DNA from: Candidatus Nanoarchaeia archaeon
Lineage (GTDB): Archaea > Nanobdellota > Nanobdellia > Woesearchaeales > DATDTY01
Assembly: GCA_035290625.1 (NCBI GenBank)
Contig: DATDTY010000068.1
Location: forward strand, 1-39,274
Direction of reading: 5' to 3'
DNA: 39,274 nucleotides
Positions 13,329-28,796 of the stretch are shown one piece after another. Made by a program: the position numbers and the translations under genes. The number at the start of each line of letters is the position of its first letter. Position 1 is the first letter of the stretch. The notes under the pieces were generated by a model that ran no database searches, was not told the DNA's origin, and saw nothing but the letters and a program-made list of their open reading frames with translations.

Positions 13329-13501
13329 GAGGTTGGTGCGAAATCCTCGCAATGCTCGGGTTGCCATCGAGTTCGCACATGGCATATATGTCTGTGATAA
13401 TCGACATTCGTCCCGGATGGAGCATCCCCTCGAAGTCGATGCTTATTCATTAGCGATGTTGCTCACAAAATGATGGCAACCTTCAATTTCGCACCAACCT
13501 C
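13329..13501 (+). mobile_element. Hairpin element A (173 bp, MITE-like or structured RNA)
   Basis: The ends are a perfect 16-bp inverted repeat (gaggttggtgcgaaat at 13329-13344 and its complement at 13486-13501). Inside is a second 10-bp stem (13359-13368 with 13472-13481), then the box gagttcgc (13369-13376). Next come an inner stem atcgac/gtcgat (13400-13405 and 13435-13440), an innermost ggat/atcc hairpin, and the box gctcacaaaa (13461-13470). The two boxes and inner loop are shared with elements B and C, while the stems differ but remain paired. It contains no reading frame of note. It sits just upstream of the lipoprotein promoter. Confidence 0.7.
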
Positions 13502-13510
13502 GTGATTATG
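13502..13510 (+). repeat. Right 9-bp direct repeat flanking hairpin element A
   Basis: This is an exact copy of gtgattatg at 13320-13328, directly abutting the right inverted repeat. It also lies next to the TATA box of the downstream lipoprotein gene. Confidence 0.7.
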
Positions 13511-13515
13511 AATAC

Positions 13516-13525
13516 TATTATAAAT
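13516..13525 (+). promoter_or_regulatory. TATA box for lipoprotein gene
   Basis: The string tattataaat is centred about 25 bases before ATG 13545, suggesting a leaderless or near-leaderless transcript. Confidence 0.55.
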
Positions 13526-13544
13526 GAGATTCGATTAGAAAACA

Positions 13545-14009
13545 ATGATGAAATACATTCTTTTACTGGGCCTCCTGTTTTTGGCAGCCTGCTCCTCATC
13601 AATCGACCCGTCATTGAAATTCCAGCTCCTGGAGGCTGCGGATTCCCTGCCAGACGCCCAGATCCTTCAAATCCTTGTCGCTGAGCAGAGCAGGTTTGAG
13701 GAATGCAGCACAGCCATCCATGCGGCATACCAGAGCAGAGGGAAGGAGCTAAGCAGGGAGCTGTGCGGAGGAGTTATCAGAAAGGAGATAGTGGAGGAAG
13801 ACAAAGATACGTATCGGGTCGAGTTCCATGTCGATTACCCTTCCTGCAGTGAGAGTGTGATTCCCATGGCAGCGCTTATGGATCTGGAAACTGAGGATGT
13901 CCAGGTGGTGTGGGCAGCAGGGCAGCGGCCTGATCCTGAGTATGTGCAAAGAGTCCAAGAACGGCTGCAGATAAGCGATTGCGAGAAGTTTGCTGAGCAG
14001 ATTACGTGA
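13545..14009 (+). CDS. Small lipoprotein, unknown function
   Basis: The 154-residue product begins MMKYILLLGLLFLAACSSS, a classic lipoprotein signal peptide with lipobox LAAC, so it should be exported and lipid-anchored at Cys16 or so. The mature part is acidic, mixed alpha/beta, and contains four more cysteines (near FEECS, RELCGG, YPSCSE, ISDCEK) that could form two disulfides outside the cell. No known domain was recognised. A second Met (13548) could be the start. Its last 8 bases overlap the end of the convergent pilin-like gene. Confidence 0.75.
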   Translation: MMKYILLLGLLFLAACSSSIDPSLKFQLLEAADSLPDAQILQILVAEQSRFEECSTAIHAAYQSRGKELSRELCGGVIRKEIVEEDKDTYRVEFHVDYPSCSESVIPMAALMDLETEDVQVVWAAGQRPDPEYVQRVQERLQISDCEKFAEQIT

Positions 14010-14262
14010 GAAAATCCTGCTCTCTCTGCAGGTATTCTTCCTTCGAGATGCTTCCCGTGATATACTGGACCTGGAGCTTTTTAAGAGGGTCGTCTAATGC
14101 TGCGGGGTTTATCACGATGGCTGTTGGAGGCTCTGCCACTTCCTCAATGTTTATCTTGTCCACATAGGCTTTGCCCCAGTTCATTGTGACTGCCCCAATG
14201 CCGAGCGCGAAGACTAGCAGGAGGAAGGTGGCAACCAATGGGGTGAGGCCTTTCTTGTTCAT
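14002..14262 (-). CDS. Type IV pilin-like small membrane protein
   Basis: The 86-residue product begins MNKKGLTPLVATFLLLVFAL. A short basic head is followed by a hydrophobic helix, like archaeal pilin/archaellin N-terminal domains, where a class III signal peptidase cuts before the helix. The C-terminal part (PLKKLQVQYITGSISKEEYL) looks like a SHOCT-like oligomerisation motif, similar to the tail of the giant surface protein. It is last in a three-gene minus-strand operon, overlapping its neighbour by 4 bases (ATGA). It could be a pilin-like subunit or simply a small membrane-anchored accessory protein. Confidence 0.65.
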   Translation of the reverse strand: MNKKGLTPLVATFLLLVFALGIGAVTMNWGKAYVDKINIEEVAEPPTAIVINPAALDDPLKKLQVQYITGSISKEEYLQREQDFLT

Positions 14263-14564
14263 TTTCTAAGCTTCGACAGATACTCCTTCTGGAGGAGCAG
14301 GAGATAGATGAAAAGAGTGATGATGACCATCTCAAGCAGGGGAAAGACTACTGCAGGAACATCAATAATCTTTGCAATATCGAGCACAGTGATGATTTCT
14401 TCAAATATGAATATGACGATGGTTGCAAAGAGGTATTTCCAGGGAAGGAGGTAGGTGTTTTTTGCAGAACGGAACATATACCCGAACAGGATCAGGACAA
14501 TAATAACAAGGCCAAGATTATAGTAAGGGGCTGTAAGGCCGAGGGCGTCTGCAAAGCTGGTCAT
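14259..14564 (-). CDS. Small integral membrane protein, 101 aa
   Basis: Three hydrophobic segments are visible: YYNLGLVIIVLILFGYMF, KYLFATIVIFIFEEIITV and the C-terminal VVFPLLEMVIITLFIYLLLL. The string PWKYLFATIVIFIFEEI matches PWKFLIVALVLFALQQV of the upstream gene, so the two are paralogues and may form a hetero-oligomer. It overlaps both neighbours by 4 bases (ATGA) in the operon. The family was not recognised. Confidence 0.7.
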   Translation of the reverse strand: MTSFADALGLTAPYYNLGLVIIVLILFGYMFRSAKNTYLLPWKYLFATIVIFIFEEIITVLDIAKIIDVPAVVFPLLEMVIITLFIYLLLLQKEYLSKLRK

Positions 14565-14887
14565 TTCTTCCTCTTTTTGCCGCGTTTTCCGGCCTGCATT
14601 TCGTAGGTGTTAAGGACAATCTGGAACACCAGGGCTGCAATGACAAAGCCAAGCATAAAGGTAGGGTTGATGTGTGTAAGATAAGGAGAGCTGTAGACGC
14701 GAAACGCGCGAAACGCTCCAAGAACCTGCTGGAGCGCGAAAAGCACCAAAGCTACGATGAGGAATTTCCATGGCCTGAGGAACCGCTGATTGCGCGAGGC
14801 CTGAAACAAGGAGACTGCGATCATGCCGGCAACAACAGAAAGCAGGAGATTTGCAATTTTCAGGACGCCTTCAAGCTGCTCAACCAT
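14561..14887 (-). CDS. Small integral membrane protein, 108 aa
   Basis: This is the first gene of the three-gene operon. Hydrophobic helices lie at about residues 8-26, 40-60 and 77-93. The C-terminus is strongly basic (AGKRGKKRKK), likely cytoplasmic. It is a paralogue of the next gene (shared PWKFL/PWKYL helix). Together with the pilin-like third gene this suggests a small membrane assembly, possibly a surface-appendage or sensing complex. Function unknown. Confidence 0.7.
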   Translation of the reverse strand: MVEQLEGVLKIANLLLSVVAGMIAVSLFQASRNQRFLRPWKFLIVALVLFALQQVLGAFRAFRVYSSPYLTHINPTFMLGFVIAALVFQIVLNTYEMQAGKRGKKRKK

Positions 14888-14973
14888 TACACACCTCTTT
14901 TTGCCATGGCTTTTGGCGGGAGAGTATAAAAAGGTTGCGATGAGGTGATGTAAACTTGTTAACTTCTCGCTCT

Positions 14974-15131
14974 GGCTTTTTGCAGGGGCTTATCAGGGAT
15001 GCCGCCGAGTTCGCTTCCAGTTTCCTTTGTTCATATCGACATTCCCCGGGTTGGACGACCCCCTTGTCGATGCGCTTCTTTTTTGCTGCAAAGCTCACAA
15101 AAAGGCGGCACCCTTCCCCCTGCAAAAAGCC
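14974..15131 (+). repeat. Hairpin element B (158 bp), related to element A
   Basis: The outer inverted repeat is ggctttttgcagggg (14974-14988) with its complement at 15117-15131. The second stem is ggg(a)tgccgcc with ggcggcaccc. The box gagttcgc is at 15007-15014, the stem atcgac/gtcgat at 15035-15040 and 15066-15071, the inner hairpin gggt/accc, and the box gctcacaaaa at 15093-15102. Boxes and spacings match element A while both outer stems have different sequence but stay complementary. No clear flanking duplication is visible. It ends about 36 bases before the next gene's TATA box. Confidence 0.65.
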
Positions 15132-15166
15132 TTGAGGCACTTGGAAACTTTACCTGATGCAAAAGA

Positions 15167-15174
15167 TTTAAATA
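15167..15174 (+). promoter_or_regulatory. TATA box for first paralogue gene
   Basis: tttaaata, centred 27 bases before ATG 15198. Confidence 0.6.
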
Positions 15175-15197
15175 GCGGATTTCCCAAAAGAAGAAGC

Positions 15198-15809
15198 ATG
15201 CTGAAGCATAAGTATGAGGGAAAAGATCAGGTTGTTGTTGCCAATTGGAGGCTGAAATACAAGGATTACCACCATCTGAAGAATCTCTACACCACAATGC
15301 ACGAATGGCTTGTCGAGGAAGGATGGGCTTCAAGAAGCGACCCGGATTTTCCTGAGGATTACTTTGTGATGCGCGAAAAGCCCCATGAAGGGGGGAATGA
15401 GGTGTGGTGGACTGTCAAGAAGACTCCGGTTGACAAGGGAGGGCAAAACTCCTATTACCAGTGGGTCATGGATATCAATGTTCATGTCATCCTGCTGAAG
15501 GATGTAGAGGTTATCCACGAAGGCCAGAAGTTTAAGACCAACTGGGGAGAGCCTGAGATCAAGGCTGAGGCAAGGCTTATCATGGACAAGGATGATGTAT
15601 GGAAGAAGCATCCTTTGCTTAAATATTTCAATACGATCGTGCATAAGAGGATTTTGCTGGAGAAGTTTCAAGCGCAGGAGCTTGAGCTCTATAGGGAGTG
15701 CTATCGGTTCCAGGAGGCAATCAAGACCTGGCTTCAGATGAAAACATGGCTGCCTGAGCCTGAGCTTGGCAAGTTCTGGCCAGAGAAAGGCCTTGGAAGC
15801 GTGCAGTAG
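15198..15809 (+). CDS. Hypothetical protein, paralogue 1 of 3
   Basis: The 203-residue soluble protein is rich in aromatic and charged residues. It shares a pattern with the next two genes: an N-terminal KYEG or similar, then a helix with LY..M..WL...G, a Trp-rich beta sheet, and a C-terminal helical part. I chose ATG 15198 because a TATA box lies 27 bases upstream, although the frame stays open further upstream through hairpin element B. Family and function were not recognised. The three-gene array suggests tandem duplication and possibly a heteromeric complex. Confidence 0.7.
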   Translation: MLKHKYEGKDQVVVANWRLKYKDYHHLKNLYTTMHEWLVEEGWASRSDPDFPEDYFVMREKPHEGGNEVWWTVKKTPVDKGGQNSYYQWVMDINVHVILLKDVEVIHEGQKFKTNWGEPEIKAEARLIMDKDDVWKKHPLLKYFNTIVHKRILLEKFQAQELELYRECYRFQEAIKTWLQMKTWLPEPELGKFWPEKGLGSVQ

Positions 15810-15835
15810 TACAGTTGAGGAATATCCGGCGATAG

Positions 15836-15845
15836 TTTTATAAAC
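15836..15845 (+). promoter_or_regulatory. TATA box for second paralogue gene
   Basis: ttttataaac, 27 bases before ATG 15867. The transcript is predicted to be leaderless. Confidence 0.6.
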
Positions 15846-15866
15846 GCTCTGGGCTCTGAAGCGATC

Positions 15867-16412
15867 ATGGGTCCGCTTACAAAAGTTCCAGCTCCTACCT
15901 TGGTCATTAAGTATGAAGGGATATTTGATTTCGAAGGGCTGTACAAGACACTCGTAAGCTGGTTTATAGACCAGGGATACCGGTTTGAGGAGCTGAGCCT
16001 CAAGCATAAGGTGCCAAGCCTGGCTGGAACTGAACTGGAGTATATCTGGTTCGCATGGAGGAGGCATAATGAGTATACAAAATTCTGCGTTGACATGATA
16101 TTCAAGCTCTATGATGCAAAAGACCTTGATGTTATCAAGGATGGAAAGAAAAAGCGGCTTACAAAGGCGAGAATCCTGTGCGAGTTTCACGGGTATCTTG
16201 AGCTGGACTATTCCAAGCGGTTTGGAGGAAACAAATTTCTGCAGGGCTTGAATAAGTTTCTGCAGTACCAGATCCTCATGAAGCCGATGGAAGGGGTCAT
16301 CGGAAGCATGTGGTGGGATGAACTGTACTACAGGACATTGAAGCTTCATGCTGTGATAAAGGAGTACCTTGCTCTGGAAGCAAAAGGGAATGCCTATTTT
16401 GATATGTGGTGA
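15867..16412 (+). CDS. Hypothetical protein, paralogue 2 of 3
   Basis: The 181-residue soluble protein resembles its neighbours. It has KYEGIFDFEGLYKTLVSWF near the start (compare LTYEGLFVATDLYQMIDNWF in the next gene), a central beta region with DMIFKLYDAKDLDVIKDGKK, and a conserved LELDYSKRF segment (compare LETDYENRW). Its predicted leaderless promoter is its own, and its end overlaps the start of the third copy. No catalytic motif is evident and the function is unknown. Confidence 0.75.
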   Translation: MGPLTKVPAPTLVIKYEGIFDFEGLYKTLVSWFIDQGYRFEELSLKHKVPSLAGTELEYIWFAWRRHNEYTKFCVDMIFKLYDAKDLDVIKDGKKKRLTKARILCEFHGYLELDYSKRFGGNKFLQGLNKFLQYQILMKPMEGVIGSMWWDELYYRTLKLHAVIKEYLALEAKGNAYFDMW

Positions 16413-16960
16413 AGATGGTAGAAAGAGAGACAGTCATTGACAAGCTTCGCTTGACGTATGAAGGGTTGTTTGTTGCTACAGACCTCTATCAGATGATTGA
16501 TAACTGGTTCAGGCAGAAGGCGTATGATAAGAGGGAGAATAAGAATATCGAGAAGGTCACCCCTGATGGAAAATACATAGAAATCGAGCTTGAGCCCTGG
16601 AAGAAGATTACAGACTACGCCAGGATCGTGATTAAGATCCGGCTTATCATGAATGATGTCAAGGAGATAGAGATGGAGAAGGACGGGCTCAAGGTGAGGA
16701 TGAACCAGGGCAAGGTGCATGTCGTCATGGATTCATATCTTGAGACTGATTATGAGAACCGCTGGGAGGGGTCTCCTGTCTTTTATTTCATACGGGTTAT
16801 TTTTGACAAGTTTATTTTTAAGCCGCTGACTGGAGGATGGAAGAGCGAGGTTGTGCATGACACCAACCACCTGTACGGCCAGATCAGGTCGTTCCTGAAC
16901 CTGTATAAGTTCTCTACTGAAACCTTCACAGCTCCGCGGCCGCAGTATAATGCGCCGTAA
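16406..16960 (+). CDS. Hypothetical protein, paralogue 3 of 3
   Basis: The 184-residue protein is of the same family as the two upstream genes (see LTYEGLFVATDLYQMIDNWF and LETDYENRW). It is translationally coupled to paralogue 2. Possible starts are GTG 16406, GTG 16409 and ATG 16415, and the sequence does not settle which. The ggtga at 16408-16412 is too close to 16415 for a typical ribosome binding site. The C-terminus is extended and proline-rich (TAPRPQYNAP). Function unknown. Confidence 0.75.
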   Translation: MVKMVERETVIDKLRLTYEGLFVATDLYQMIDNWFRQKAYDKRENKNIEKVTPDGKYIEIELEPWKKITDYARIVIKIRLIMNDVKEIEMEKDGLKVRMNQGKVHVVMDSYLETDYENRWEGSPVFYFIRVIFDKFIFKPLTGGWKSEVVHDTNHLYGQIRSFLNLYKFSTETFTAPRPQYNAP

Positions 16961-16962
16961 TG

Positions 16963-16971
16963 TTTTTAAAT
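16963..16971 (+). promoter_or_regulatory. TATA box for tRNA-Thr
   Basis: tttttaaat lies about 37 bases upstream of the mature 5' end, implying a leader of roughly ten bases. Confidence 0.5.
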
Positions 16972-17003
16972 GAGGTTCCTTTCTTTGGGAATAACGTTTG
17001 AGC

Positions 17004-17088
17004 GCCTCCGTAGCATAGTAGCTATTGCATCTGACTTGTATATACTAAAGGAATCAGAAGGTCGCGAGTGCAATTCTCGCCGGAGGCT
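17004..17088 (+). tRNA. tRNA-Thr(TGT) with a short intron
   Basis: The acceptor stem gcctccg/cggaggc (17004-17010 and 17081-17087) is perfect, and the unpaired base after it is T, usual for archaeal tRNA-Thr. The anticodon stem tctga/tcaga encloses cttgta, giving anticodon TGT at 17037-17039. A 12-base intron (about 17041-17052) follows at the canonical position after base 37, leaving a 73-base mature tRNA. The T-arm gcgag/ctcgc has loop tgcaatt, so the nearly invariant U55 is G. CCA is not encoded. The last base overlaps the stop codon of the convergent gene. Confidence 0.9.
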
Positions 17089-17369
17089 TAATTATGCACC
17101 TTTTTGTTGTCCCTATGCTCTTTAAAGTCCCTTGCAAGGGAATTAAAGCTTCTTTGCATGTTTCTGATGTCGTGTTTATTGCCAGTTGAAGTTCTGAGCA
17201 GGGCTCCTGTTAATCCTATATTGAATATCACCAGCGACAAGATTATGTCCTCAATTGCCCATGAGCCTCCTGCCAATGCTCTTAGTATCTGATATGCAAT
17301 GTAAATCCCTAATAGGGCCAATACAATATACAAAGATAATTCCAGCCTATCTCGTTTATTTTTGTGCAT
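17088..17369 (-). CDS. Small membrane protein, 93 aa
   Basis: Two hydrophobic helices are visible (about residues 10-32 and 38-60: LSLYIVLALLGIYIAYQIL and WAIEDIILSLVIFNIGLTGA). A soluble, charged helical tail follows (RNMQRSFNSLARDFKEHRDN). This pattern, a two-helix anchor plus coiled tail, is common in DPANN genomes but I cannot name a family. It lies directly downstream of a 30-residue membrane peptide gene and ends at the tRNA-Thr 3' end. Confidence 0.7.
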   Translation of the reverse strand: MHKNKRDRLELSLYIVLALLGIYIAYQILRALAGGSWAIEDIILSLVIFNIGLTGALLRTSTGNKHDIRNMQRSFNSLARDFKEHRDNKKVHN

Positions 17370-17371
17370 GC

Positions 17372-17464
17372 TTATCCGCCTAACCTTTTTATCAAGAGTA
17401 TTGTTAAAAGGATTATTAAGAGAATTATTACAAAATAAAGAAATTTAATCTGGCCTTTTTTCAT
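17372..17464 (-). CDS. 30-residue single-helix membrane microprotein
   Basis: The minus strand encodes MKKGQIKFLYF followed by an almost pure Ile/Leu helix and LIKRLGG, then a stop. Lysines flank about 17 hydrophobic residues, the layout of a real transmembrane segment. The next gene starts 2 bases after its stop, in the same orientation, suggesting co-transcription. It is too short to be certain. Base composition alone (A/T-rich) could produce such a frame by chance. Confidence 0.45.
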   Translation of the reverse strand: MKKGQIKFLYFVIILLIILLTILLIKRLGG

Positions 17465-17511
17465 CTTATTGAGGAAAAGAGCGGGCTATTTAACTGTTGT
17501 GGTGGAGAAGA

Positions 17512-18075
17512 TTAGCCCCAATAGCTCTCTGATTTAGCCAACAAGTCCTTTAAGAATCTCTTTCCGGTCTCTGTCTTGAATTTTGGGAGGTTCCTTCCTT
17601 TGAAATACTCAAGATACTTGAGGCTGTTCTCCTTATCAAAATTTGGAGGTATGTGTTCCCAGTCTATCTTAGCGAGGCCGTCTGCCTCAAGGACCAATTG
17701 TGCGTTATGGCTGTCCAGCCTGTCTTTTTTATAATGATGGCCGATTAGAGTTGTGATCTCTTTTACTTCTGCTTCAGGGTATCCGAGCTTTTCCAGTATT
17801 GGCTTCGCAAGTTTTGCTCCGATTTCATCGTGGGATTGCTTGCTTTTCATGAGATCATCAAAGGTGTAGCCTTTTTTGAGCTTTGGATAGCCGATGTCAT
17901 GGAGGTACATGGTTGAGACAAGAATGCGTTCGTCTCCGCCTTCAGCATCGATAAGCTCTCTCATCCAGTGAACGGTTAGAAGGGTGTGGGGGATATCCCA
18001 ATCAGGTTTTCCGTCCTTGAGGTAGGCTACTGCTTCAGATTTCAGCTTTTCTTCTGTTTCTGCATCTAATCTCAT
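17512..18075 (-). CDS. HD-domain phosphohydrolase
   Basis: This 187-residue soluble metal-dependent hydrolase has the HD signature: a first His in IPHTLLTVHWM (near residue 30), then YLHDIGYPKL (near residue 58), SHDEIGAKLAKPIL, IGHHYKKD and finally EADGLAKID. These are the metal ligands expected of HD-superfamily phosphatases acting on nucleotides or related phosphoesters, though the substrate cannot be read from sequence. Its start overlaps the stop of the upstream 69-residue gene (TAATG), so the two are translationally coupled. Confidence 0.85.
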   Translation of the reverse strand: MRLDAETEEKLKSEAVAYLKDGKPDWDIPHTLLTVHWMRELIDAEGGDERILVSTMYLHDIGYPKLKKGYTFDDLMKSKQSHDEIGAKLAKPILEKLGYPEAEVKEITTLIGHHYKKDRLDSHNAQLVLEADGLAKIDWEHIPPNFDKENSLKYLEYFKGRNLPKFKTETGKRFLKDLLAKSESYWG

Positions 18076-18284
18076 TATTTCGGAGGTGATTCGCTAACAA
18101 TAATTCTTAACTTTGGTTCAACTTTCGGATCAAGCCGCAAGTTCCTAAGCTCATAGCTCTTTATGCCCATCTTCTCTGCGTATACCTTTGCAGCCTGCTC
18201 TGACCTGAAGGTCTTGGGCCTCTTCTTTTTCGAGCCCTTGTGAGTCCCCCGGAGCCTGCAGCGCTTCATAAGACCACTTGCCAT
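18075..18284 (-). CDS. Small basic protein, 69 aa
   Basis: The basic N-terminus (KRCRLRGTHKGSKKKRPKTF) is followed by a compact alpha/beta part (SEQAAKVYAEKMGIKSYELRN and KLRIIV), suggestive of a nucleic-acid-binding or ribosome-associated protein. No family is named. I chose ATG 18284 over a longer frame because a TATA box (18308-18315) lies about 27 bases upstream of it. It is divergent from the radical SAM gene and forms an operon with the HD hydrolase. Confidence 0.65.
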   Translation of the reverse strand: MASGLMKRCRLRGTHKGSKKKRPKTFRSEQAAKVYAEKMGIKSYELRNLRLDPKVEPKLRIIVSESPPK

Positions 18285-18307
18285 GCTAAACGGGGCTTCT
18301 CTGGCTC

Positions 18308-18315
18308 TTTTAAAG
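18308..18315 (-). promoter_or_regulatory. TATA box for 69-aa gene and HD hydrolase
   Basis: Minus strand ctttaaaa, 27 bases before the chosen ATG 18284. It is divergent with the next promoter. Confidence 0.5.
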
Positions 18316-18363
18316 GTTTTGTTTTTTGACGGCGCATGGCACTTGTGAAGCAGCATCCAACAA

Positions 18364-18373
18364 TTTTATATAC
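18364..18373 (+). promoter_or_regulatory. TATA box for radical SAM gene
   Basis: ttttatatac, about 27 bases before ATG 18395. Confidence 0.6.
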
Positions 18374-18394
18374 TTCCGGCAGCTGGAGAAGGAT

Positions 18395-19486
18395 ATGCCC
18401 ACTGCCTGCATCATTGACGGATTCAGCGGATGCATGCTGAACAGCTGGGATTCGCAGCTTTTCCATAAGTTCTTTGCGATGAATAACTGGAAGGTTGTTT
18501 CTGACTGGAAGGATGCTGATCTTGTTCTGCTGAATACCTGCGCTTTTGTGAAGAGCGTTGAGGACAAGGTTGTGCAGAGGATTATTGAGATCAAGGCTGA
18601 ATTAAGACAAAACCAGAGGATGGTTGTTGCTGGCTGCTTTCCAAAAATCAATGATGAAAGGCTGAGAGAGATCTTTGAAGGAGTCAGTTTTGGGCCAAGA
18701 GAAAACACACAACTGAATAAGATTATTGATGCCCAGGTTAAGATTGAAGATGTCAGGATAAATCGATTGGAAGAGCAGTACCTGAACGGCGCGCCGAGCT
18801 CAAGATTCTACATCAAGATTGAAGATGGATGTTTGGGGAACTGCAGCTTCTGCGCGATTAAGGCTGCGAAAGGGAACCTGAAGAGCATTGAGCCTGAAAG
18901 GATTCTGGAGCAGTTCAGGAAAGGCAGGGAGGTTGGGTATAAGGAATTTGTTTTGCTTGGGGATGATATCGGGTGCTATGGAAGGGATATCAGGACAAAT
19001 CTGGTTGAATTGCTGAAGAGGATTGTCCAGCAAGACGGGGAATTTTACCTTTTCCTTCATTTTGTCCAGCCGAACTGGTTTCTCGATATGATTGATGGGT
19101 TTAGGGACGTGTTTGCAACAGGCAAGGTTACGGTGCTCAATATTCCGATACAATCAGGGAATGACCGGGTATTGAGGCTGATGCGGAGGCCGTATTCCAT
19201 GAAAGAGGTTCTGCCAGTGATGCAGAAGATTAAGGCGGAGTTTCCCTCTGTACTCCTTCAGACACACGTCATTGTTGGTTTTCCCGGCGAGACCTATGCA
19301 GAGTTCCTGGATAGCCTTGAAGCTGCAAAATATTTTGATGTTGTGAAGTTCTTTGGATTTTCTGAAAGGCCAGGAAGGAAGAGCGTCCTGAGTTCAGAGG
19401 CAAAGCTGCACCGGCAGGCTGCATTTGGGCTGATTGAGGGGCAGATTGAAGAGGGGAAGGGGACTTATTTGATTGTGCAGGGTTAG
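18395..19486 (+). CDS. MiaB/CDKAL1-like radical SAM methylthiotransferase, TRAM-less
   Basis: The 363-residue product has the two-cluster architecture of methylthiotransferases. The N-terminal UPF0004 domain has cysteines in FSGCMLNSWDSQ, LLNTCAFVKSVEDKV and VVAGCFPKIN. The radical SAM domain has CLGNCSFC (near residue 147), then LLGDDIGCYGRD and IPIQSGNDRVLRLMRR. Family members add a methylthio group to tRNA position 37 or to ribosomal protein S12. In archaea the usual target is t6A37 of tRNA. The protein ends soon after the radical SAM barrel, so the C-terminal TRAM RNA-binding domain is missing. Start ATG 18395 fits the TATA box. The nearby TruD and tRNA genes fit a tRNA-modification role. 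The exact substrate is inference. Confidence 0.85.
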   Translation: MPTACIIDGFSGCMLNSWDSQLFHKFFAMNNWKVVSDWKDADLVLLNTCAFVKSVEDKVVQRIIEIKAELRQNQRMVVAGCFPKINDERLREIFEGVSFGPRENTQLNKIIDAQVKIEDVRINRLEEQYLNGAPSSRFYIKIEDGCLGNCSFCAIKAAKGNLKSIEPERILEQFRKGREVGYKEFVLLGDDIGCYGRDIRTNLVELLKRIVQQDGEFYLFLHFVQPNWFLDMIDGFRDVFATGKVTVLNIPIQSGNDRVLRLMRRPYSMKEVLPVMQKIKAEFPSVLLQTHVIVGFPGETYAEFLDSLEAAKYFDVVKFFGFSERPGRKSVLSSEAKLHRQAAFGLIEGQIEEGKGTYLIVQG

Positions 19487-19487
19487 G

Positions 19488-19495
19488 TTTAAATA
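19488..19495 (+). promoter_or_regulatory. TATA box for 19518 gene and adk
   Basis: tttaaata, 26 bases before ATG 19518. It overlaps the end of the radical SAM gene. Confidence 0.6.
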
Positions 19496-19517
19496 GGATT
19501 GCACACTTTCTGCAGCC

Positions 19518-19982
19518 ATGACAGACATCCAGAAGGCCTATGAGGGGCTGAGGAAGAGGCATCCTGAGCTGCCACTCTTCTCAGAAGTTGATTCGTTGTT
19601 TGAGATCTCTAACATGGAGAAGGAGAGATTTCTGCTCAGGTCAATCCGCCGGTCTATCCTCGAGGAGATCGAATATCTGCTGCACAGCATGGAGCCGGTT
19701 TTCCAGCCTGAGAACTCTGTTGCAGGGATGCACGAGTGCAGATTTTTGCAGGAGGATGAGAAGCAGCGTTTTTTTGACCTCTACAGAAAACTTGCAGCAC
19801 TGCATCGGAAAGGGATTGCTGCTGCGCTGAGGTATCAGGAAGATGAAGAGGCTGCATTTATCGCATCAGTATGCCGGGTGTGGAAGCCGCTGGCTGCAGA
19901 TGTCGCCACCTACTTGGCAAAGATTGCTGGCGTATGGGAGAGAGAATCGGAATCTGAAGAAAAAGCAGGGTATTTTGGATGA
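19518..19982 (+). CDS. Hypothetical helical protein, 154 aa
   Basis: This is a wholly soluble, mostly helical protein. It has a central RRSILEEIEYLLHSME segment and a C-terminal helix around EEAAFIASVCRVWKPLAADV. I know of no family match. It overlaps the start of adenylate kinase by 4 bases (ATGA), so it is translationally coupled to it. Function unknown. Confidence 0.7.
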   Translation: MTDIQKAYEGLRKRHPELPLFSEVDSLFEISNMEKERFLLRSIRRSILEEIEYLLHSMEPVFQPENSVAGMHECRFLQEDEKQRFFDLYRKLAALHRKGIAAALRYQEDEEAAFIASVCRVWKPLAADVATYLAKIAGVWERESESEEKAGYFG

Positions 19983-20686: not shown

Positions 20687-20689
20687 CTT

Positions 20690-21828: not shown

Positions 21829-21831
21829 TTT

Positions 21832-21860: not shown

Positions 21861-21870
21861 GATATATAAA
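21861..21870 (-). promoter_or_regulatory. TATA box of the HEPN/MNT operon
   Basis: Minus strand tttatatatc, about 37 bases before ATG 21828. Confidence 0.6.
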
Positions 21871-21885
21871 CCTTCCTATTTTGAA

Positions 21886-22947: not shown

Positions 22948-22968
22948 AGAGCCCGGGGATAAAAAGGC

Positions 22969-22976
22969 TTATAAAA
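22969..22976 (+). promoter_or_regulatory. TATA box for tRNA-Arg
   Basis: ttataaaa, about 27 bases before the tRNA 5' end at 23000. The mature 5' end may therefore equal the transcript start. Confidence 0.6.
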
Positions 22977-22999
22977 AGGTTGAGGCTTTGCTCTGATGT

Positions 23000-23118
23000 G
23001 CGCCTGTAGCTCAGTCTGGATACCGGAAAAACTCCAGCTTTTCGGGATTGGCCGGTAGGACAAATAGAGCGAAAGGTTCCTAACCTTTAGGTCGGGGGTT
23101 CAAATCCTCCCAGGCGCG
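23000..23118 (+). tRNA. tRNA-Arg(CCT) with a 44-base intron in the D-loop
   Basis: The acceptor stem is gcgcctg/caggcgc (23000-23006 and 23111-23117), discriminator G. The anticodon stem-loop aaagg-ttcctaa-cctt gives CCT (Arg). The T-arm ggggg-ttcaaat-cctcc is normal. The D-stem gctc (23009-23012) finds its partner gagc only at 23067-23070. Removing about 44 bases (roughly 23021-23064, exact ends blurred by an ATA present at both edges) restores a normal 75-base tRNA with D-loop agtctggata. The extra segment contains a taccgg/ccggta stem (23021-23026 and 23052-23057), compatible with a relaxed bulge-helix-bulge splice site. Confidence 0.85.
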
Positions 23119-23130
23119 CTTCACAGTTAA

Positions 23131-23138
23131 TTATAAAA
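23131..23138 (+). promoter_or_regulatory. TATA box for glycosidase-like gene
   Basis: ttataaaa, about 27 bases before ATG 23162. Predicted leaderless. Confidence 0.6.
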
Positions 23139-23161
23139 GCTCCGAGTTTGTAATCTATTCC

Positions 23162-24259
23162 ATGTTCTCTCCAATCTACATCAGCGAAGGGCTTCGGATG
23201 TTCAGAAGGAAGCTGCGGGTCCAGGGAAGAGGATTTAAGCAGTATCCTGGAGATGCAGCGGACATTTGCAGGCAGATCATTGAGGACTGCTGGAATGGAA
23301 GATATTTCCAGACTTCAACAGGCCACTTCTGCGAGTTCTGGGTAAGGGATTTCAGCTGGTGCTGCAGGCCATTGCTTCGGCTGGGGTATAAGGAAGAAGT
23401 CAGGAAGACATTGGAGTACGCTCTGGGGATATATTCAAGGTGTGGAAGGGTGACTACTACGATATCTCCCAGAGGCGGGCCATTTGATTTTCCTAATTTC
23501 TCTCCTGATTCTTTGGCTTCTTTGATTCTTTGCTTAAATCAGGCTAAAGCTAAATCATTGATTTCTGGATACAAGGATTTTCTCAATAAAAAGATTTCTG
23601 AGTATGAGGAGAAGGTTTTGGACAGGGAAACAGGGCTTGTTAGACAAGGAATTCCTTTCTCTTCCATAAAGGATCATGCCAGGAGGAGCTCTTCATGCTA
23701 TAATAATGTCATGCTTGCGATGCTTGCAAGGGAGATTAAGAAAACTTCATTGGATAACCCCTTCAGGGGATTTAATTTTAAGAAGAGGGTAAAGGAGGAG
23801 TTCTGGAATGGGGACTATTTTTATGATGATATGGAGAAACTGCCTGTTGTGACGGGGGATTCGAATGTTTTTCCATTCTGGACAGGAATTTTTACTGAAA
23901 AGGAGATGATGAGACGTGCATTCAGGGCAATTGAAGAAGTAGGTTTGGATAAGCCTTTTCCTCTACGATATACCTGTAAGAGGTACAAGAGGCAGAGAAT
24001 GCTTATCTATGAAATTCTTGCACGGAATTATGAGAGGACGACAATATGGAATCATATAGGGCTTATGTATGTTTCTTTGCTGAAACAGGTTGATAGGAAG
24101 AGACACAGGAAGAGCATTGAGGATTATAAGGACGTGATAGGGAAACATAAAACATTCCTTGAGGTGTATAATCCTGCAGGGAAGCCTTATAAATCACTGG
24201 TTTACACCTGTGATGAAGGGATACTGTGGAGCAGTATGCTTCTGGAGATGTTGAGATGA
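23162..24259 (+). CDS. Alpha/alpha-toroid (glucoamylase-like) glycosidase-type protein
   Basis: The 365-residue soluble protein has the pattern of six-hairpin alpha/alpha-barrel glycoside hydrolases. The early WVRDFSWCCRPLLRLGYKEE (near residue 60) and KTLEYALGIYSRCG resemble the substrate-pocket helices of GH15/GH63-like enzymes. Later come ARRSSSCYNNVMLAMLAREI, WNGDYFYDD and TTIWNHIGLMYV. It likely acts on a glycan or on a glycoside in the cytoplasm, but the catalytic acids cannot be assigned with certainty. It overlaps the following glycosyltransferase gene by 4 bases, so a joint role in glycan processing is likely. Confidence 0.65.
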   Translation: MFSPIYISEGLRMFRRKLRVQGRGFKQYPGDAADICRQIIEDCWNGRYFQTSTGHFCEFWVRDFSWCCRPLLRLGYKEEVRKTLEYALGIYSRCGRVTTTISPRGGPFDFPNFSPDSLASLILCLNQAKAKSLISGYKDFLNKKISEYEEKVLDRETGLVRQGIPFSSIKDHARRSSSCYNNVMLAMLAREIKKTSLDNPFRGFNFKKRVKEEFWNGDYFYDDMEKLPVVTGDSNVFPFWTGIFTEKEMMRRAFRAIEEVGLDKPFPLRYTCKRYKRQRMLIYEILARNYERTTIWNHIGLMYVSLLKQVDRKRHRKSIEDYKDVIGKHKTFLEVYNPAGKPYKSLVYTCDEGILWSSMLLEMLR

Positions 24260-24960
24260 TGTTTTCTATCATTATTCCAACCTTGAATGAAGAGAGATAC
24301 CTTCCAAGGCTGTTGGGATCAATCAGGAACCAAAGATTCAGGGATTACGAGATCATTGTAGCTGATGCACATTCCAAAGATAAGACTAGGGATATTGCAA
24401 GGAGATTTGGATGCAGAATTGTGAATGGAGGGATTTCTTCCTTAGGAAGGAATAACGGAGCAAAGATTGCAAAGGGAGAGTATTTCCTCTTCCTTGATGC
24501 TGACGGGATGATTGCTGACAAAAGGTTTCTGGAGAAACTTGTAGATGTTATTAACAGAAGAAATGTGGAAGTAGGGTCTTGCTTGGCATTGCCTATTCAT
24601 GGGAGCATACTCGATAAGATTCTCCACATTAGCGCAAATGCCTATATGAGGATTGCGCAATGGACCAAGCCACTTGTTTGGGGACCCTGCATGTTTAGCT
24701 CAAAACAGCTGTTCGATAAGGTCAAGGGGTTCAACCAGAATCTGAGATTTGGAGAGGATCTTGATTTCGGCTATCGGGCTGCGAAACATGGTAAGTATAG
24801 GGCGATTCCTATATATTTTGGGGTTTCTCTGAGGAAGTTTAAGAAGGATGGGTATCTACGAACTATCTCTAACTATATCAATATAGGAATCCGTTATTCT
24901 CTTTTCACCAAGGTGGGCCAAAACCGCGTGAAGTATAGGTTTTATTCAGAGAAGAAGTAA
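24256..24960 (+). CDS. Family 2 glycosyltransferase
   Basis: The 234-residue GT-A enzyme begins MMFSIIIPTLNEERYLPRLL. It continues YEIIVADAHSKDKTRDIARR, then LFLDADGMI (the DxD that binds the metal and sugar nucleotide, near residue 80), and GFNQNLRFGEDLDFGYRAAK (the acidic ED motif near residue 165). No membrane anchor is evident apart from a short hydrophobic stretch. ATG 24256 overlaps the previous stop (ATGA), so it is preferred over GTG 24226. It probably builds a surface glycan or glycolipid with the neighbouring transferases. Confidence 0.9.
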   Translation: MMFSIIIPTLNEERYLPRLLGSIRNQRFRDYEIIVADAHSKDKTRDIARRFGCRIVNGGISSLGRNNGAKIAKGEYFLFLDADGMIADKRFLEKLVDVINRRNVEVGSCLALPIHGSILDKILHISANAYMRIAQWTKPLVWGPCMFSSKQLFDKVKGFNQNLRFGEDLDFGYRAAKHGKYRAIPIYFGVSLRKFKKDGYLRTISNYINIGIRYSLFTKVGQNRVKYRFYSEKK

Positions 24961-24966
24961 CGTGGT

Positions 24967-25806
24967 TCATCTGAGGAGCACAGAGTCAAATAGACGGTAC
25001 ATTGTTCGCAGAATTAGGTGGGTAAGTATTTTCTGTTTGTTGCAGCCCTTTCCATAACCAAAGTTTTTGAGCGGCCTTAACATTGAGTATCTTCCTGCAT
25101 TATGCACTATTGGGATTTTCTGGCCATTCTGGAGGTAGAGAACGCCCTCTTTTATTGTAAATTTAGCATCTTTAGCATCTAATGTGCTGATGATGAAGTT
25201 ATATTTAGGATTAAGCTCTTTGAATCCGTCTCTTTGGAGGACGTAATTAATAATTATCTGATCAGGTCCGAATCTGCCTTTGTCTTCTATGAGAGACACA
25301 ATTTCATTGCAGAGACCTATGAACTTGTATGATGGGCCAAGAAGAACTCCTGCATTGACTATCTTTTTTCCATGGAGGCACTCTTTCATTTTACTTGATA
25401 CCTTCCTGCTAAAGCAGGTTTTAAGGAAATAGGATTTGTACAGCTTGTTTGTGCCTTCATATGCTGCTCTGAATGCCCCCGTATCTTCTGAAAAAATGGA
25501 GCTTATGCCATCCTGAAAGATAATATCCCCTCCGTCAACAGACAATACCTGGTCGTACTCTTTTCTCTTGAGAATAATCGCCATTTCCCGCCACCTGATA
25601 TTGACTATGGCGCCGTCCTTCTTTGCCTTATGCACGATAACATTATTACGTTTCAACTCAGAAACTTGTATTTCAGTCAACCCATAATCTAAAACGATGA
25701 CATCTGTGTTTGTCAAGTCAACATTATCTTTTAGGGATCTCAACCAGTGTGTTACCAGAAAATCTCCGTATTTCTCATCAGACGATGTAAAGATAACATT
25801 TTTCAT
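24967..25806 (-). CDS. GT-A type glycosyltransferase-like protein (GT8-like)
   Basis: The 279-residue soluble protein opens with MKNVIFTSSDEKYGDFLVTH. Family-type strings are VLSVDGGDIIFQD (DxD-like, near residue 90), KKIVNAGVLLG, GRFGPDQIIINYVLQ and IPIVHNAGR, as in nucleotide-diphospho-sugar transferases of the GT8 kind. It lies convergent to the GT2 gene with a 6-base gap, inside a glycan cluster. Sugar donor and acceptor are unknown. Confidence 0.75.
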   Translation of the reverse strand: MKNVIFTSSDEKYGDFLVTHWLRSLKDNVDLTNTDVIVLDYGLTEIQVSELKRNNVIVHKAKKDGAIVNIRWREMAIILKRKEYDQVLSVDGGDIIFQDGISSIFSEDTGAFRAAYEGTNKLYKSYFLKTCFSRKVSSKMKECLHGKKIVNAGVLLGPSYKFIGLCNEIVSLIEDKGRFGPDQIIINYVLQRDGFKELNPKYNFIISTLDAKDAKFTIKEGVLYLQNGQKIPIVHNAGRYSMLRPLKNFGYGKGCNKQKILTHLILRTMYRLFDSVLLR

Positions 25807-25978
25807 AGCAATACCTTATCTTTTACGCTATTCTCCTCAGGTTTCGAGATCAAATAAAAATCCCAACAGCTGCAAGCGACGAGGCATCATAAACAAATGA
25901 TTTTTTTATGATTTTCGATTGATGGCTAATGCATGCCTTCCTATACGTGTTTTCCATAAATGTTAAGACTTTCACTCT
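25807..25978. other. Intergenic stretch between two glycosyltransferase genes
   Basis: This is A/T-rich and holds no convincing gene, RNA or repeat. It probably carries the promoter of the 24967-25806 gene, but no clear TATA box can be chosen. Confidence 0.4.
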
Positions 25979-27094
25979 TTATTCTTTGTATATTTTTTCC
26001 AGCTGGCGTATTGTGTTCTCTATCGCGTACTTCTTCACTGCAATTAATGAGCTTTTCTCCATTTTCTTCCTCAGCTTTGTACCTTTGAGTATTCTTGTGA
26101 TTCGGTCTGCCAGCATTCGGGGGTTGTTGGACGGGGCTATGAAGCCGTTGGAATCGTCTTTAACAATATCAGGAATTGCTCCTGCATTCACCCCCACGAT
26201 GGGCAGACCGCAGGCCATTGCCTCGAGAACAACAAGTCCTTCAGTCTCTATGGGAGACGCTGTTGCAAAGAGGGCTGCTGAGGAGTAGAGCTTTGGCAGT
26301 TTGTTGTGGGGAACCGATCCTAGGAACTTAATGTTCTTTACGTACTTGGCAAAGTCTTGGAGATACTTTTCCTGAGGCCCTGATCCTGCGATGACGAGCG
26401 TTGTATCTGAGGAGGTTTCCTGGATAGTCTTGAATGCTTCTATAAGGATATCAATTCTCTTTTCATAGCTGAGCCTGCCCACATGGAGTATTGTTCTTCT
26501 CTTTTTGTTTACCTTTCTCGGATAGAACAATGTTGTGTCCACTCCATTGGAGACTACACGGATTGGAGCAGTGATTCCGTGTCGTTTGAGCTCTTTCTTC
26601 ATCGCATTGGAAGGTGTTATTACTGTGTTGCACCTGTTGTAGAAGTGTTTTGTGTAGTTCCACGTAATTGATTTGGCAAATGGAAATTTGGACAGCTTTG
26701 CGTTTTTTATCGGCATCTTTACATGGTCAAGAAATTCTGGAAGAAGCGTATTATATGTCCCAATGACAGGTATGCCTTTGATTTTTCCGTATGCGAGACC
26801 CTCCCAGCCGAGGAAGGATGGCATGTGGCAATGTATGATGTCTGGCTTGAAGGCTGCAAGCACTTTAAGGCTTTGTGTTGAGGGCACGCCTATTGGGAAA
26901 TCAGGATATCTGAGGATGTCAATGCTTGGGAGATATGTGATCCTCATTTTAGGGATGGTTGTTCTTTTCTTTGCTGTTGTGAATATCATTACTTCATGGT
27001 CTTTTTTAGCGAGATACTTTGCTGCATTGAGAATTGATGTAACCACCCCATTCTGCGAAGGCAGAAATGTGTCTGTGAAGAATGCTATCCTCAG
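25979..27094 (-). CDS. Family 4 glycosyltransferase, probable CTG start
   Basis: This is a GT-B fold retaining glycosyltransferase of 371 residues. The true N-terminus LRIAFFTDTFLPSQNGVVTS is encoded upstream of the first conventional start (GTG 27046) and is essential to the fold. The only plausible start giving MRIAFF is CTG 27094, which overlaps the gatE stop as CTGA. An in-frame stop lies about 20 codons further up, and no ATG/GTG/TTG lies between. Family motifs are HVGRLSYEKRIDILIEAF, SPIETEGLVVLEAMACGLPI and GVNAGAIPDIV. It likely glycosylates a lipid or surface glycan and is translationally coupled to gatE. Confidence 0.88.
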   Translation of the reverse strand: MRIAFFTDTFLPSQNGVVTSILNAAKYLAKKDHEVMIFTTAKKRTTIPKMRITYLPSIDILRYPDFPIGVPSTQSLKVLAAFKPDIIHCHMPSFLGWEGLAYGKIKGIPVIGTYNTLLPEFLDHVKMPIKNAKLSKFPFAKSITWNYTKHFYNRCNTVITPSNAMKKELKRHGITAPIRVVSNGVDTTLFYPRKVNKKRRTILHVGRLSYEKRIDILIEAFKTIQETSSDTTLVIAGSGPQEKYLQDFAKYVKNIKFLGSVPHNKLPKLYSSAALFATASPIETEGLVVLEAMACGLPIVGVNAGAIPDIVKDDSNGFIAPSNNPRMLADRITRILKGTKLRKKMEKSSLIAVKKYAIENTIRQLEKIYKE

Positions 27095-28518
27095 TTTAGG
27101 AGCTTTTGCAATATCTCGCTCACCTTCTTCCCTTCAACCTTTCCCCTAAATCTTTTCATTGCAATGCCCATCAAAGCTCCCAGAGAGGCTCCTTTGTTCT
27201 CATCGATGATGAGCTTGATTGCCTTTTCTATCTCGGCATCGGATACTGTTTTAAATTCAGTTAGAGAGTATTTCTCATTTCTTAATTTTTTTGTGAGGAT
27301 GTCTATAATCGCCTCTTTTGGAATCTGCTTTTTTTCGTAGAAGTTGAGGACTTCCTTGAAATCCGCATGCGTCAGCTTTTTTGTGTCAAGGCCGAATCGC
27401 GACTTTATTTCTTTTGGAGTCGCTATTAAGGTGTTGGCTATGAATAAGGGCTCCAATGATTTGAATTCTTTGAAATAGGACGGAAGGCTGATTTTTCTTT
27501 TTACTGCTTCTTCTGCAAATTCTTTCGGTATCCTGTAGGTTTCCTGGAGCTGTTTTATTTCATCTGATAAGAGATTTGGAAGCTTTGCCTCAAGCATCGA
27601 TTCCGGTATCTTTATAGGCACAACATCTGTCTCTGGATATAATCTTGCGGCTCCCGGCAACGGCCTAAGGAAAGAGGTGGTAAAGCCAGGCTCTGCTTTT
27701 CTCACTTCGTTCTTTAGTGTTTTCCCCTGTTTTATTTCATTGAGCTGCCTCTGGATCTCCTGCTCGATAACTCTAGGGATAGACTTCAATTCCTGGAAGC
27801 CTTTTATCTCCGTCCTTGCGCCGCCTTTTATTGATACATTGACATCCTGCCTGATGGAGCCGATGCCGCGCTTCATCGAGCCAACGCTTCGGAGCATCAT
27901 CCCAATTATTGAGGCTGCTTCTTTCACATGCTCAGGATCCTGCAATGAGGCATCGGTTGATATCTCAAGAAGCGCAACCCCTAAGCGGTCAAGGCGGTAG
28001 GTGACTGATTCTTCGTTTTGGTCAATTTTTTTTGCTGCCTCTTCCTCCAGGAGGAGGGTCGGTATCGCTACGTTCCCTTTCGCGGTTTCAACATACCCAT
28101 TCCTTCCAATTAAGGCTGTGCGCTGGAAGCCTGTCGTGTTTGAGCCGTCAATGACTATTTTCCTCATGACCTGGATTTCGTCAACAATGGACATGTGAAG
28201 AAGGCGGGCCACGTTTACTGCGATTTCAAGCGCCTTCTGGTTTATGGTTTTTGGGGGTTCTTCATCAATTTCTATAAGACAAGAGCTTGTTGGCGCTGCT
28301 TCATAGACGTAATACTTCTTTTTTGCTTCTTCGTGCCTGGCAGCAATGTCAATTTCTCCTGTCTCTCCAACAACTGCCCGCAAATACCTTTTTATGCGAA
28401 TTGAGGCCTTGTTTGGGTCATTGACTAAAGAGGGGCAGTCGCAGAAGAGCTTTTTTGTGTCAAGCTGCTGGTGGACTTCCAGGCCTGCTTTGAAGCCGAG
28501 GTCTTTGTAATTGAGCAT
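27091..28518 (-). CDS. gatE: Glu-tRNA(Gln) amidotransferase subunit E, lacking the GAD insert
   Basis: With GatD it converts Glu-tRNA(Gln) to Gln-tRNA(Gln) in archaea. The start GFKAGLEVHQQLDTKKLFCD is the GatE form (GatB has GLEVHVQL). GIGSIRQDVNVSIKGGART and EIKGFQEL are in place, and the C-terminal GatB/YqeY tail domain (SLGALMGIAMKRFRGKV) is present. The protein is 475 residues while GatE is usually about 620. It passes straight from VIEQEIQRQLNEIKQG to TTSFLRPLPGAARLYPETD, so the AspRS-like GAD insertion is missing. A TATA box is 26 bases upstream, and its stop overlaps the next gene. Confidence 0.9.
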   Translation of the reverse strand: MLNYKDLGFKAGLEVHQQLDTKKLFCDCPSLVNDPNKASIRIKRYLRAVVGETGEIDIAARHEEAKKKYYVYEAAPTSSCLIEIDEEPPKTINQKALEIAVNVARLLHMSIVDEIQVMRKIVIDGSNTTGFQRTALIGRNGYVETAKGNVAIPTLLLEEEAAKKIDQNEESVTYRLDRLGVALLEISTDASLQDPEHVKEAASIIGMMLRSVGSMKRGIGSIRQDVNVSIKGGARTEIKGFQELKSIPRVIEQEIQRQLNEIKQGKTLKNEVRKAEPGFTTSFLRPLPGAARLYPETDVVPIKIPESMLEAKLPNLLSDEIKQLQETYRIPKEFAEEAVKRKISLPSYFKEFKSLEPLFIANTLIATPKEIKSRFGLDTKKLTHADFKEVLNFYEKKQIPKEAIIDILTKKLRNEKYSLTEFKTVSDAEIEKAIKLIIDENKGASLGALMGIAMKRFRGKVEGKKVSEILQKLLN

Positions 28519-28539
28519 AGAGGTAAAAGGTGGCGGTAG

Positions 28540-28549
28540 GTTTATAAGG
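28540..28549 (-). promoter_or_regulatory. TATA box for gatE
   Basis: Minus strand ccttataaac, about 26 bases before ATG 28518. Leaderless transcript predicted. Confidence 0.6.
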
Positions 28550-28640
28550 TTTTTTATGCGAATTTTGCTTCTCGGAGCAGAGTAAAGAGATTATTGTTTA
28601 GCGATATTCCAAACTAGCTCATACCATGCCTGTGCATTTT

Positions 28641-28768
28641 TGGTCGCTCCTTCGGAGCAGTTCGCCTTGTGCGTATGTGAGCGAGGAGCGACATATCCTC
28701 CGATGGGACGACCCCCTTGTCGCTGTGACGTCTTTTGATAAAGAAGGCTCACGGATGATGTTGCCTTC
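28641..28768 (+). repeat. Hairpin element C, diverged relative of elements A and B
   Basis: It keeps the box agttcgc (28659-28665), the inner stem agcgac/gtcgct (28687-28692 and 28719-28724; A and B have atcgac/gtcgat) and the loop string gacgacccccttgtcg. It also keeps the box gctcac (28747-28752) and the trailing ccttc. Spacings between boxes are 21, 26 and 22 bases, against 23/29/20 in A and 20/25/21 in B. The left partner of the outer stems is not evident; a local gctcc-ttc-ggagc hairpin is there instead. It ends just before the promoter of the next plus-strand gene. Confidence 0.55.
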
Positions 28769-28796
28769 ATTTTCAGAGCCCAATTCTCCGAAAGGC

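What the first reader, a model, noticed from the sequence alone, without database searches (positions are those of the whole stretch)
13329..28768. Three hairpin elements with conserved boxes and covarying stems
Elements A (13329-13501), B (14974-15131) and C (about 28641-28768) share gagttcgc / (a/g)cgacat...ccccttgtcg / gctcac boxes at nearly fixed spacing. The stems holding the boxes differ but remain paired: the A and B outer stems are unrelated in sequence yet perfect; the second stem is ggttgccatc in A and gggtgccgcc in B; the inner stem is atcgac/gtcgat versus agcgac/gtcgct; the innermost hairpin is ggat/atcc versus gggt/accc. This is the mark of selection on structure, as in a non-coding RNA of about 160-175 bases or a protein-bound DNA hairpin. 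I know of no described family with these boxes.
Basis: seen in the sequence. Interest (0 to 1): 0.9.

Follow-up and report, generated by a model that had tools for sequence, protein, structure and literature searches.

The report
Mobile DNA hairpins of Woesearchaeota
The three hairpins are copies of a small jumping DNA element, present about 145 times in this archaeal genome and in dozens of related Woesearchaeota, whose intricate folded core is strongly conserved although it encodes no protein and is moved by a transposase that was not identified.

Summary
A (13329-13501), B (14974-15131 plus longer arms) and C (28637-28781, lacking its left end) are copies of a miniature inverted-repeat transposable element (MITE). 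A has 16-bp perfect terminal inverted repeats flanked by a 9-bp target-site duplication, GTGATTATG. A covariance model finds about 141 copies in the 1.37-Mb genome (some missed) and relatives in 39 of 279 sampled phylum-mates, all of the window's order. A sequence pattern scanned over 84,980 GTDB species hit essentially only Woesearchaeota-type MAGs. Rfam has nothing like it and no paper was found. Pairing is maintained despite heavy sequence change (94% of cells paired; double changes about three times shuffled controls, in own and foreign copies). The folded core is unusual for a MITE: conserved asymmetric internal-loop boxes, an apical CCCC/GGG/CCCC hairpin, and a central internal loop of about 18 + 18 bases of near-fixed length and random sequence. 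This core occurs with several terminal-repeat types. RNA function is not supported: no G-U excess over A-C in the arms or foreign cores (weak excess in own-genome cores), random orientation to genes, no promoter seen. Best reading: a MITE family whose core acts as a DNA hairpin. The partner transposase and the core's role remain unknown.

The parts
13320..13328 (.). left target-site duplication of element A, GTGATTATG
   Evidence: exact 9-bp direct repeat abutting both ends of the inverted repeat
13329..13501 (+). element A: complete 173-bp MITE
   Evidence: 16/16 terminal inverted repeat, 9-bp TSD; 96% and 95% identical full-length copies on contigs C15 and C1
13329..13344 (+). left terminal inverted repeat of A, gaggttggtgcgaaat
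13486..13501 (+). right terminal inverted repeat of A, atttcgcaccaacctc
13362..13478 (+). folded core of A (covariance model R1 match; A is in the seed)
   Evidence: 102.6 bits; pair counts
13369..13376 (+). left box gagttcgc of A
   Evidence: sequence; conservation in 139 copies
13377..13399 (+). left side of the central internal loop of A (variable, length nearly fixed across copies)
13400..13440 (+). inner stem and apical CCC/GG/CCCC hairpin of A
13441..13460 (+). right side of the central internal loop of A
13461..13466 (+). right box gctcac of A
13502..13510 (.). right target-site duplication of element A, GTGATTATG
14945..15158 (+). element B including its degenerate outer arms (approximate ends; arms compared with the B-like copies on C24, C80 and C59)
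14974..15131 (+). element B as given: perfect 15-bp arms ggctttttgcagggg / cccctgcaaaaagcc
15000..15110 (+). folded core of B (model match; B is in the seed)
   Evidence: 94.4 bits
28637..28781 (+). element C: copy lacking its left end; right arm gatgttgccttcattttcagagcc at 28758-28781; left edge approximate
   Evidence: model match 28658-28752, 41 bits, not in the seed; flanks
28687..28724 (+). inner stem and apical hairpin of C

Best explanation
SHOWN: A, B and C belong to a very abundant, Woesearchaeota-restricted family of short non-coding transposable elements (MITE type, usually about 160-170 bp). Complete copies end in inverted repeats of about 16 bp, usually beginning GG, and are flanked by 8-9 bp target-site duplications, the mark of insertion by a DDE-type transposase. 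Inside the ends lies a conserved fold: a second stem, a short asymmetric internal loop with conserved letters (left RGYUC, right YUCRCAA), 2-3 base pairs, a central internal loop of about 18 + 18 unpaired bases of near-fixed length and unconstrained sequence, an inner 6-bp stem, and an apical CCCC/GGG/CCCC hairpin. The same core is carried by elements with different terminal repeats and with 8-bp or 9-bp duplications. INFERRED: the elements are mobilised in trans by one or more DDE transposases that change over time, which explains why the ends differ. The core works as a folded DNA strand (hairpin or cruciform extruded from the inverted repeats) needed for the element's own propagation, for example as a docking structure for a host or transposase protein on single-stranded DNA at replication forks. 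Pairing of the arms is maintained jointly by selection and by template-switch repair of inverted repeats.
For: Transposon: TSD and TIR of A. 44 of 145 own copies have a TIR of at least 12/16 with an 8-10 bp direct repeat, up to one mismatch. Of 171 copies with a clear TIR, 27 have an exact 8-bp duplication at the edge, against a mean of 0.27 and maximum of 2 with shuffled flanks. About 141 copies at E<=0.01 in 1.37 Mb. Many contigs end inside copies, as expected of repeats. Mostly intergenic. Fold: 94.2% and 94.0% of cells paired in 133 own and 96 foreign distinct copies; 428 and 409 double-changed cells against 137 and 124 in shuffles; slid structures fall to 23-56% paired. Central loop: only the first two positions pair above expectation, the rest at chance, and lengths cluster at 20-23. 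Core shared between TIR classes. DNA rather than RNA: G-U is not in excess over A-C in the arms (39:49 own, 33:36 foreign) or in foreign cores (15:14); orientation in tandem gene pairs is 27 sense to 27 antisense. The resident multi-copy IS also makes 9-bp duplications, so a 9-bp DDE activity exists in this genome.
Against: No autonomous element with these terminal repeats was found. The genome has no DDE_Tnp_1, IS1595 or Transposase_mut hit, and its one IS has a different TIR, GGTTAAGTCAAC. Within the own genome G-U does exceed A-C in core stems (25:8 among cluster representatives), which leaves room for RNA. Nothing tests directly that the fold is needed for movement. Template switching could account for part of the compensatory change.
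Confidence: 0.55

Rival explanations
1. A mobile non-coding RNA: the core is transcribed and works in trans, its two fixed-length variable loop strands serving as guides; the transposon ends only spread the RNA gene.
For: Conserved unpaired boxes next to stems of free sequence look like a structured RNA. The loops are variable in sequence, of near-fixed length, truly unpaired, and seem to reassort between copies. G-U exceeds A-C in own-genome cores (25:8).
Against: No G-U excess in foreign cores or in the arms. Orientation to genes is random. No internal promoter was noticed by eye. The loops match nothing in 355 kb of the own genome except what appear to be further copies of the element. No Rfam match.
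Confidence: 0.2
2. An ordinary MITE family in which the inverted-repeat arms are kept paired mainly by replication template switching (quasipalindrome correction); the core has no function beyond ancestry.
For: Template switching homogenises inverted-repeat arms and creates perfect hairpins (PMC8794818, PMC8604942). Extra perfect hairpins are inserted in many copies. Pairing is nearly all Watson-Crick, and G-U equals A-C in the arms.
Against: Correction would also close the bulges and the central loop, yet these stay unpaired in essentially all copies; the central loop keeps its length while its sequence randomises. Box letters are 93-99% conserved in the own genome and recognisable across dozens of species.
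Confidence: 0.2
3. The boxes are double-stranded DNA protein sites spaced two helical turns (20-21 bp) apart, binding a symmetric protein; the hairpin is incidental.
For: Central spacers cluster at 20-21 bp on both sides in the own genome.
Against: Stem sequences vary freely among copies of one genome while staying complementary, which sequence-specific binding does not need. Left and right boxes are not each other's reverse complement. Foreign copies often have 22-23 on the left side.
Confidence: 0.05

Closest known systems
Miniature inverted-repeat transposable elements of prokaryotes, e.g. QMITE2 of Coxiella burnetii (review PMC10969869: direct repeats 7-9 bp, TIRs 23-29 bp, core 113-145 bp)
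   Same: Short, non-coding, multi-copy, TIRs, 8-9 bp duplications, intergenic, able to fold into a stable hairpin.
   Different: From general knowledge MITE cores are internal-deletion remnants or unrelated filler; here one folded core with conserved boxes persists across dozens of species and several terminal-repeat types. No parent IS was identified.
Insertion sequences with a 9-bp duplication and a GG end, e.g. the resident IS of this genome (G000:C49:1-916; InsA-type zinc ribbon plus DDE_Tnp_IS240) and the DDE_Tnp_1 IS in L258 (TIR GGCTAATATGAAACCCTC, 9-bp TSD)
   Same: Ends begin with GG; 9-bp duplication.
   Different: Terminal repeats do not match those of the MITEs; neither carries the core.
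IS110/IS1111 bridge RNA (from memory)
   Same: Hairpin with internal loops that hold variable sequence.
   Different: No IS110 recombinase seen near copies; these elements have TIRs and duplications, and near-identical loops sit at different insertion sites.
Integron attC sites (from memory)
   Same: DNA hairpins with conserved unpaired positions and variable remainder.
   Different: No integrase or cassette array seen; insertion leaves a duplication, unlike tyrosine-recombinase insertion.

Membership tests
MITE (non-autonomous DDE transposon) | terminal inverted repeats at both ends | tested here: met
   A 16/16; 171 copies with a TIR of at least 13/16
MITE (non-autonomous DDE transposon) | target-site duplication of fixed length | tested here: met
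   8 or 9 bp depending on TIR class; 27 exact at the edge against 0.27 expected
MITE (non-autonomous DDE transposon) | short and dispersed in many copies | tested here: met
   mostly 160-170 bp, some with inserts up to 507 bp; about 141 copies
MITE (non-autonomous DDE transposon) | codes for no transposase | tested here: met
   too short; no ORF of 100 aa or more lies within complete copies, though some neighbouring frames run into them
MITE (non-autonomous DDE transposon) | shares ends with an autonomous element that moves it | tested here: not met
   no TIR pair with transposase found in 0.4 Mb of own DNA or in about 0.5 Mb of foreign loci; Pfam searches of the genome. The genome is a draft, so absence is not proof.
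Rfam RNA families (release 15) | match to a covariance model | tested here: not met
   none over A, B, C at gathering score, none credible over A and five other loci at lax E-values
Structured non-coding RNA | covariation of stems | tested here: met
Structured non-coding RNA | strand-specific wobble (G-U tolerated more than A-C) | tested here: inconclusive
   no in arms and in foreign cores, weak yes in own cores
Structured non-coding RNA | transcript | not testable with these tools
   no transcript data
IS200/IS605 REP-type elements | no target duplication, no TIR | tested here: not met
   both are present
IS110 bridge RNA | guide loops match donor or target sites | tested here: not met
   near-identical loops at different insertion sites; no matches in own DNA outside apparent copies

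The most novel reading that the evidence does not exclude
The core is a new kind of mobile guide: a lineage-wide folded nucleic acid whose two fixed-length, fast-changing loop strands recognise something (a host, partner or virus sequence), carried in about 140 different versions per genome and spread by borrowed transposon ends.
Probability: 0.08. Interest if true: 0.9.

Novelty: new variant of a known kind. Interest (0 to 1): 0.55.

Why it matters
No paper linking MITEs with Woesearchaeota, a large DPANN lineage, was found here, and this family fills about 1.7% of one genome and occurs across the order. A selfish element without a gene can only conserve what it needs to propagate, so the conserved fold, boxes and loop lengths point to an unknown requirement in the life cycle of a MITE, or to a service to the host. 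The family also gives a natural test bed, with about 140 copies per genome, for separating selection on structure from template-switch repair.

Tried and rejected
Autonomous partner: TIR pairs 0.4-4 kb apart with duplications in own and foreign loci (one search timed out) and unpaired ends: only an expanded 507-bp copy (L152) and an unrelated IS (L258). Transposase families DDE_Tnp_1, IS1595, IS240, Transposase_mut and InsA zinc ribbon over 40 genomes and the resident transposase: homologues of the latter occur in 3 genomes, all MITE-positive (13 of 40), too few to be evidence. Guide targets: the excess of 12-mer matches (289 vs 161) is at least partly missed copies; the longest matches inspected all lie in further copies. 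Loop inversion: left loops are not reverse complements of right loops of other copies beyond chance. Virus collection: 0 hits. Rfam at lax threshold: nothing credible. One search overstated G-U because one subfamily is misaligned; the cluster-representative count is used. The exact pairing of the box loop (RG with CU, or G with C beside the covarying pair) could not be settled.

Full report
WHAT IS THERE. The sequence was read directly and folded. The first search of the own genome (G000, 1.37 Mb, 84 contigs; the window is contig C68) with element A returned 19 places, three of them full length and 95-100% identical. A is a transposable element: GTGATTATG / gaggttggtgcgaaat ... atttcgcaccaacctc / GTGATTATG.

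FAMILY. A covariance model built on ten copies finds 145 places in the own genome, 141 of them at E<=0.01, and gives no match at E<=0.01 in 27 of 40 genomes of the order, so its false-positive rate is low. A and B are in the seed, so their scores are circular; C and the great majority of the other copies are not. Some copies are missed: more were seen by eye or with lower scores. At about 165 bp each the copies make up about 1.7% of the genome. A pattern of the inner hairpin (expected chance hits 0.8 in the collection) scanned over 84,980 GTDB species gave at least 108 stretches. All listed records are Woesearchaeota, Nanoarchaeota/Nanoarchaeia or unnamed archaeal MAGs, except one 'Thaumarchaeota' MAG, probably mis-binned; nearly all of the listed loci searched were confirmed by the model. 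IMG/VR gave none. A sampled search of the phylum found 39 of 279 genomes at E<=1e-5, all of the window's order; this is a lower bound because few candidates per genome were scored. Even genomes with few copies have them as TIR-bounded insertions with duplications (G004, G018); no fixed, immobile version was seen.

ENDS. 44 of 145 own copies and 37 of 101 foreign copies show a TIR with an 8-10 bp direct repeat, allowing one mismatch. The duplication is 8 bp for GGTNGCATTGAAAAGT ends and 9 bp for GGCTTCCCTGAAAATC, GGCTNCGGTGAAAATC, GGCTCAGTAGAAAGTC, GGCTGCGTTCAAAATC and GGCTCTGTAGAAAATC ends. Other species also have a quite different class, GTATTTGTTTAGCT or GTACGTGGAAAGCT, with 8 bp. Against shuffled flanks, 27 exact duplications are observed and 0.27 expected. 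Nested insertions occur (C43:29865 and C43:30027). The ends change while the core stays. The copy on C59 combines B-like outer arms with an inner hairpin nearly identical to that of A.

FOLD. On 133 distinct own copies 94.2% of pair cells are standard pairs, with 428 double-changed cells against 137 +/- 9 in shuffles. On 96 distinct foreign copies the figures are 94.0% and 409 against 124 +/- 15. Sliding the partner by 1-3 columns drops pairing to 23-56%. Both alignments were fitted to the model, so they lean towards the structure; the seed alignment made by MAFFT without structure gives the same picture (97.0% paired, 20 double-changed cells against 4.0 in shuffles). One isolated pair next to the boxes is C-G in 83 copies and G-C in 43. 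Unpaired box letters are 93-99% conserved in the own genome. The central internal loop was tested position by position over 80 and 75 clusters: two pairs at its outer end are real, and every other position pairs at about the rate expected from composition. Its strands measure mostly 20-21 (own) or 20-23 (foreign) bases including those two. So the loop is unpaired, nearly fixed in length and free in sequence. Loops differ even between copies whose stems and inner hairpin are 90-100% identical, and left and right loops appear to reassort.

RNA OR DNA. RNA helices tolerate G-U more than A-C on the sense strand. In the arms the counts are 39:49 (own) and 33:36 (foreign). In the core the counts over cluster representatives are 25:8 (own) and 15:14 (foreign), with G-U only 3.1% and 1.7% of pairs. 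Orientation between tandem genes is 27 sense to 27 antisense; divergent 25, convergent 7 (ORF calls are crude). No internal promoter was noticed. The balance is against an RNA function, without excluding it. Template switching during replication can create and repair hairpin arms without selection (PMC8794818; PMC8604942, abstract). It may explain the strict Watson-Crick pairing and the extra perfect hairpins in many copies, but not the persistent bulges and loop.

MECHANISM. Shown: insertion with TIR and duplication, hence DDE-type transposition in trans. Inferred: the transposase is not in hand. The genome has an IS (916 bp, InsA zinc ribbon plus IS240-type DDE) in several copies with 9-bp duplications: ends at C62 and C15 share AGAGGACAG, C1 and C62 share GCAAAAAAG, C41 and C49 share GCTAGTAAC. 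It has another TIR. A DDE_Tnp_1 IS in a relative has a GGCT...GAAA end and a 9-bp duplication. Inferred: since a gene-less parasite conserves only what it needs to propagate or what pays its host, the fold most likely serves propagation as DNA.

COMPARISON. It meets every tested MITE criterion except identification of a parent element. It is not an Rfam family. It differs from known MITEs in the conserved folded core shared between end types. Searches of the open literature for MITEs or structured RNA in Woesearchaeota found nothing; most subscription papers are not held.

Noticed in passing
window 37802-38884 (-) and 39014-39181 (-): A 360-aa reverse transcriptase (RVT_1) with an Rfam RT-16 RNA just upstream (81 bits).
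   Followed up: partly
L270 / G000:C49:1-916; fragments at ends of C1, C15, C23, C41, C62: Resident multi-copy IS with InsA-type zinc ribbon plus DDE_Tnp_IS240 domain, TIR GGTTAAGTCAAC and 9-bp duplications; an IS1/IS6-like combination.
   Followed up: partly
L152:4272-4778: A 507-bp copy between GGCTCTGTAGAAAAT ends with 9-bp duplication GTAGAATGT, swollen by several perfect small hairpins.
   Followed up: partly
own genome, e.g. L133 around 1040, L088 around 1449, window 28637-28659: A recurrent insert of perfect hairpins (CAAAAATGCTTCGCATTTTTGGTCGCTCCTTCGGAGCA) in the left arm of several copies, including C.
   Followed up: no
L150 (JACPBJ010000150.1): A MAG labelled Thaumarchaeota carries the element; probably a mis-binned Woesearchaeota contig.
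   Followed up: no
own genome, contigs C9, C27, C42, C45, C56, C67, C75: Several contigs start or end inside a copy, so assembly breaks at these elements and the copy number is a lower bound.
   Followed up: no
window 28827-29609 (+): Nucleotidyltransferase gene downstream of C; its first residues weakly resemble DUF2080, a putative transposon-encoded protein (E 6e-4, below cut-off).
   Followed up: no
window 46-8379 (+): 2777-aa repetitive ORF with many N-S/T motifs, probably a giant surface protein (by eye).
   Followed up: no
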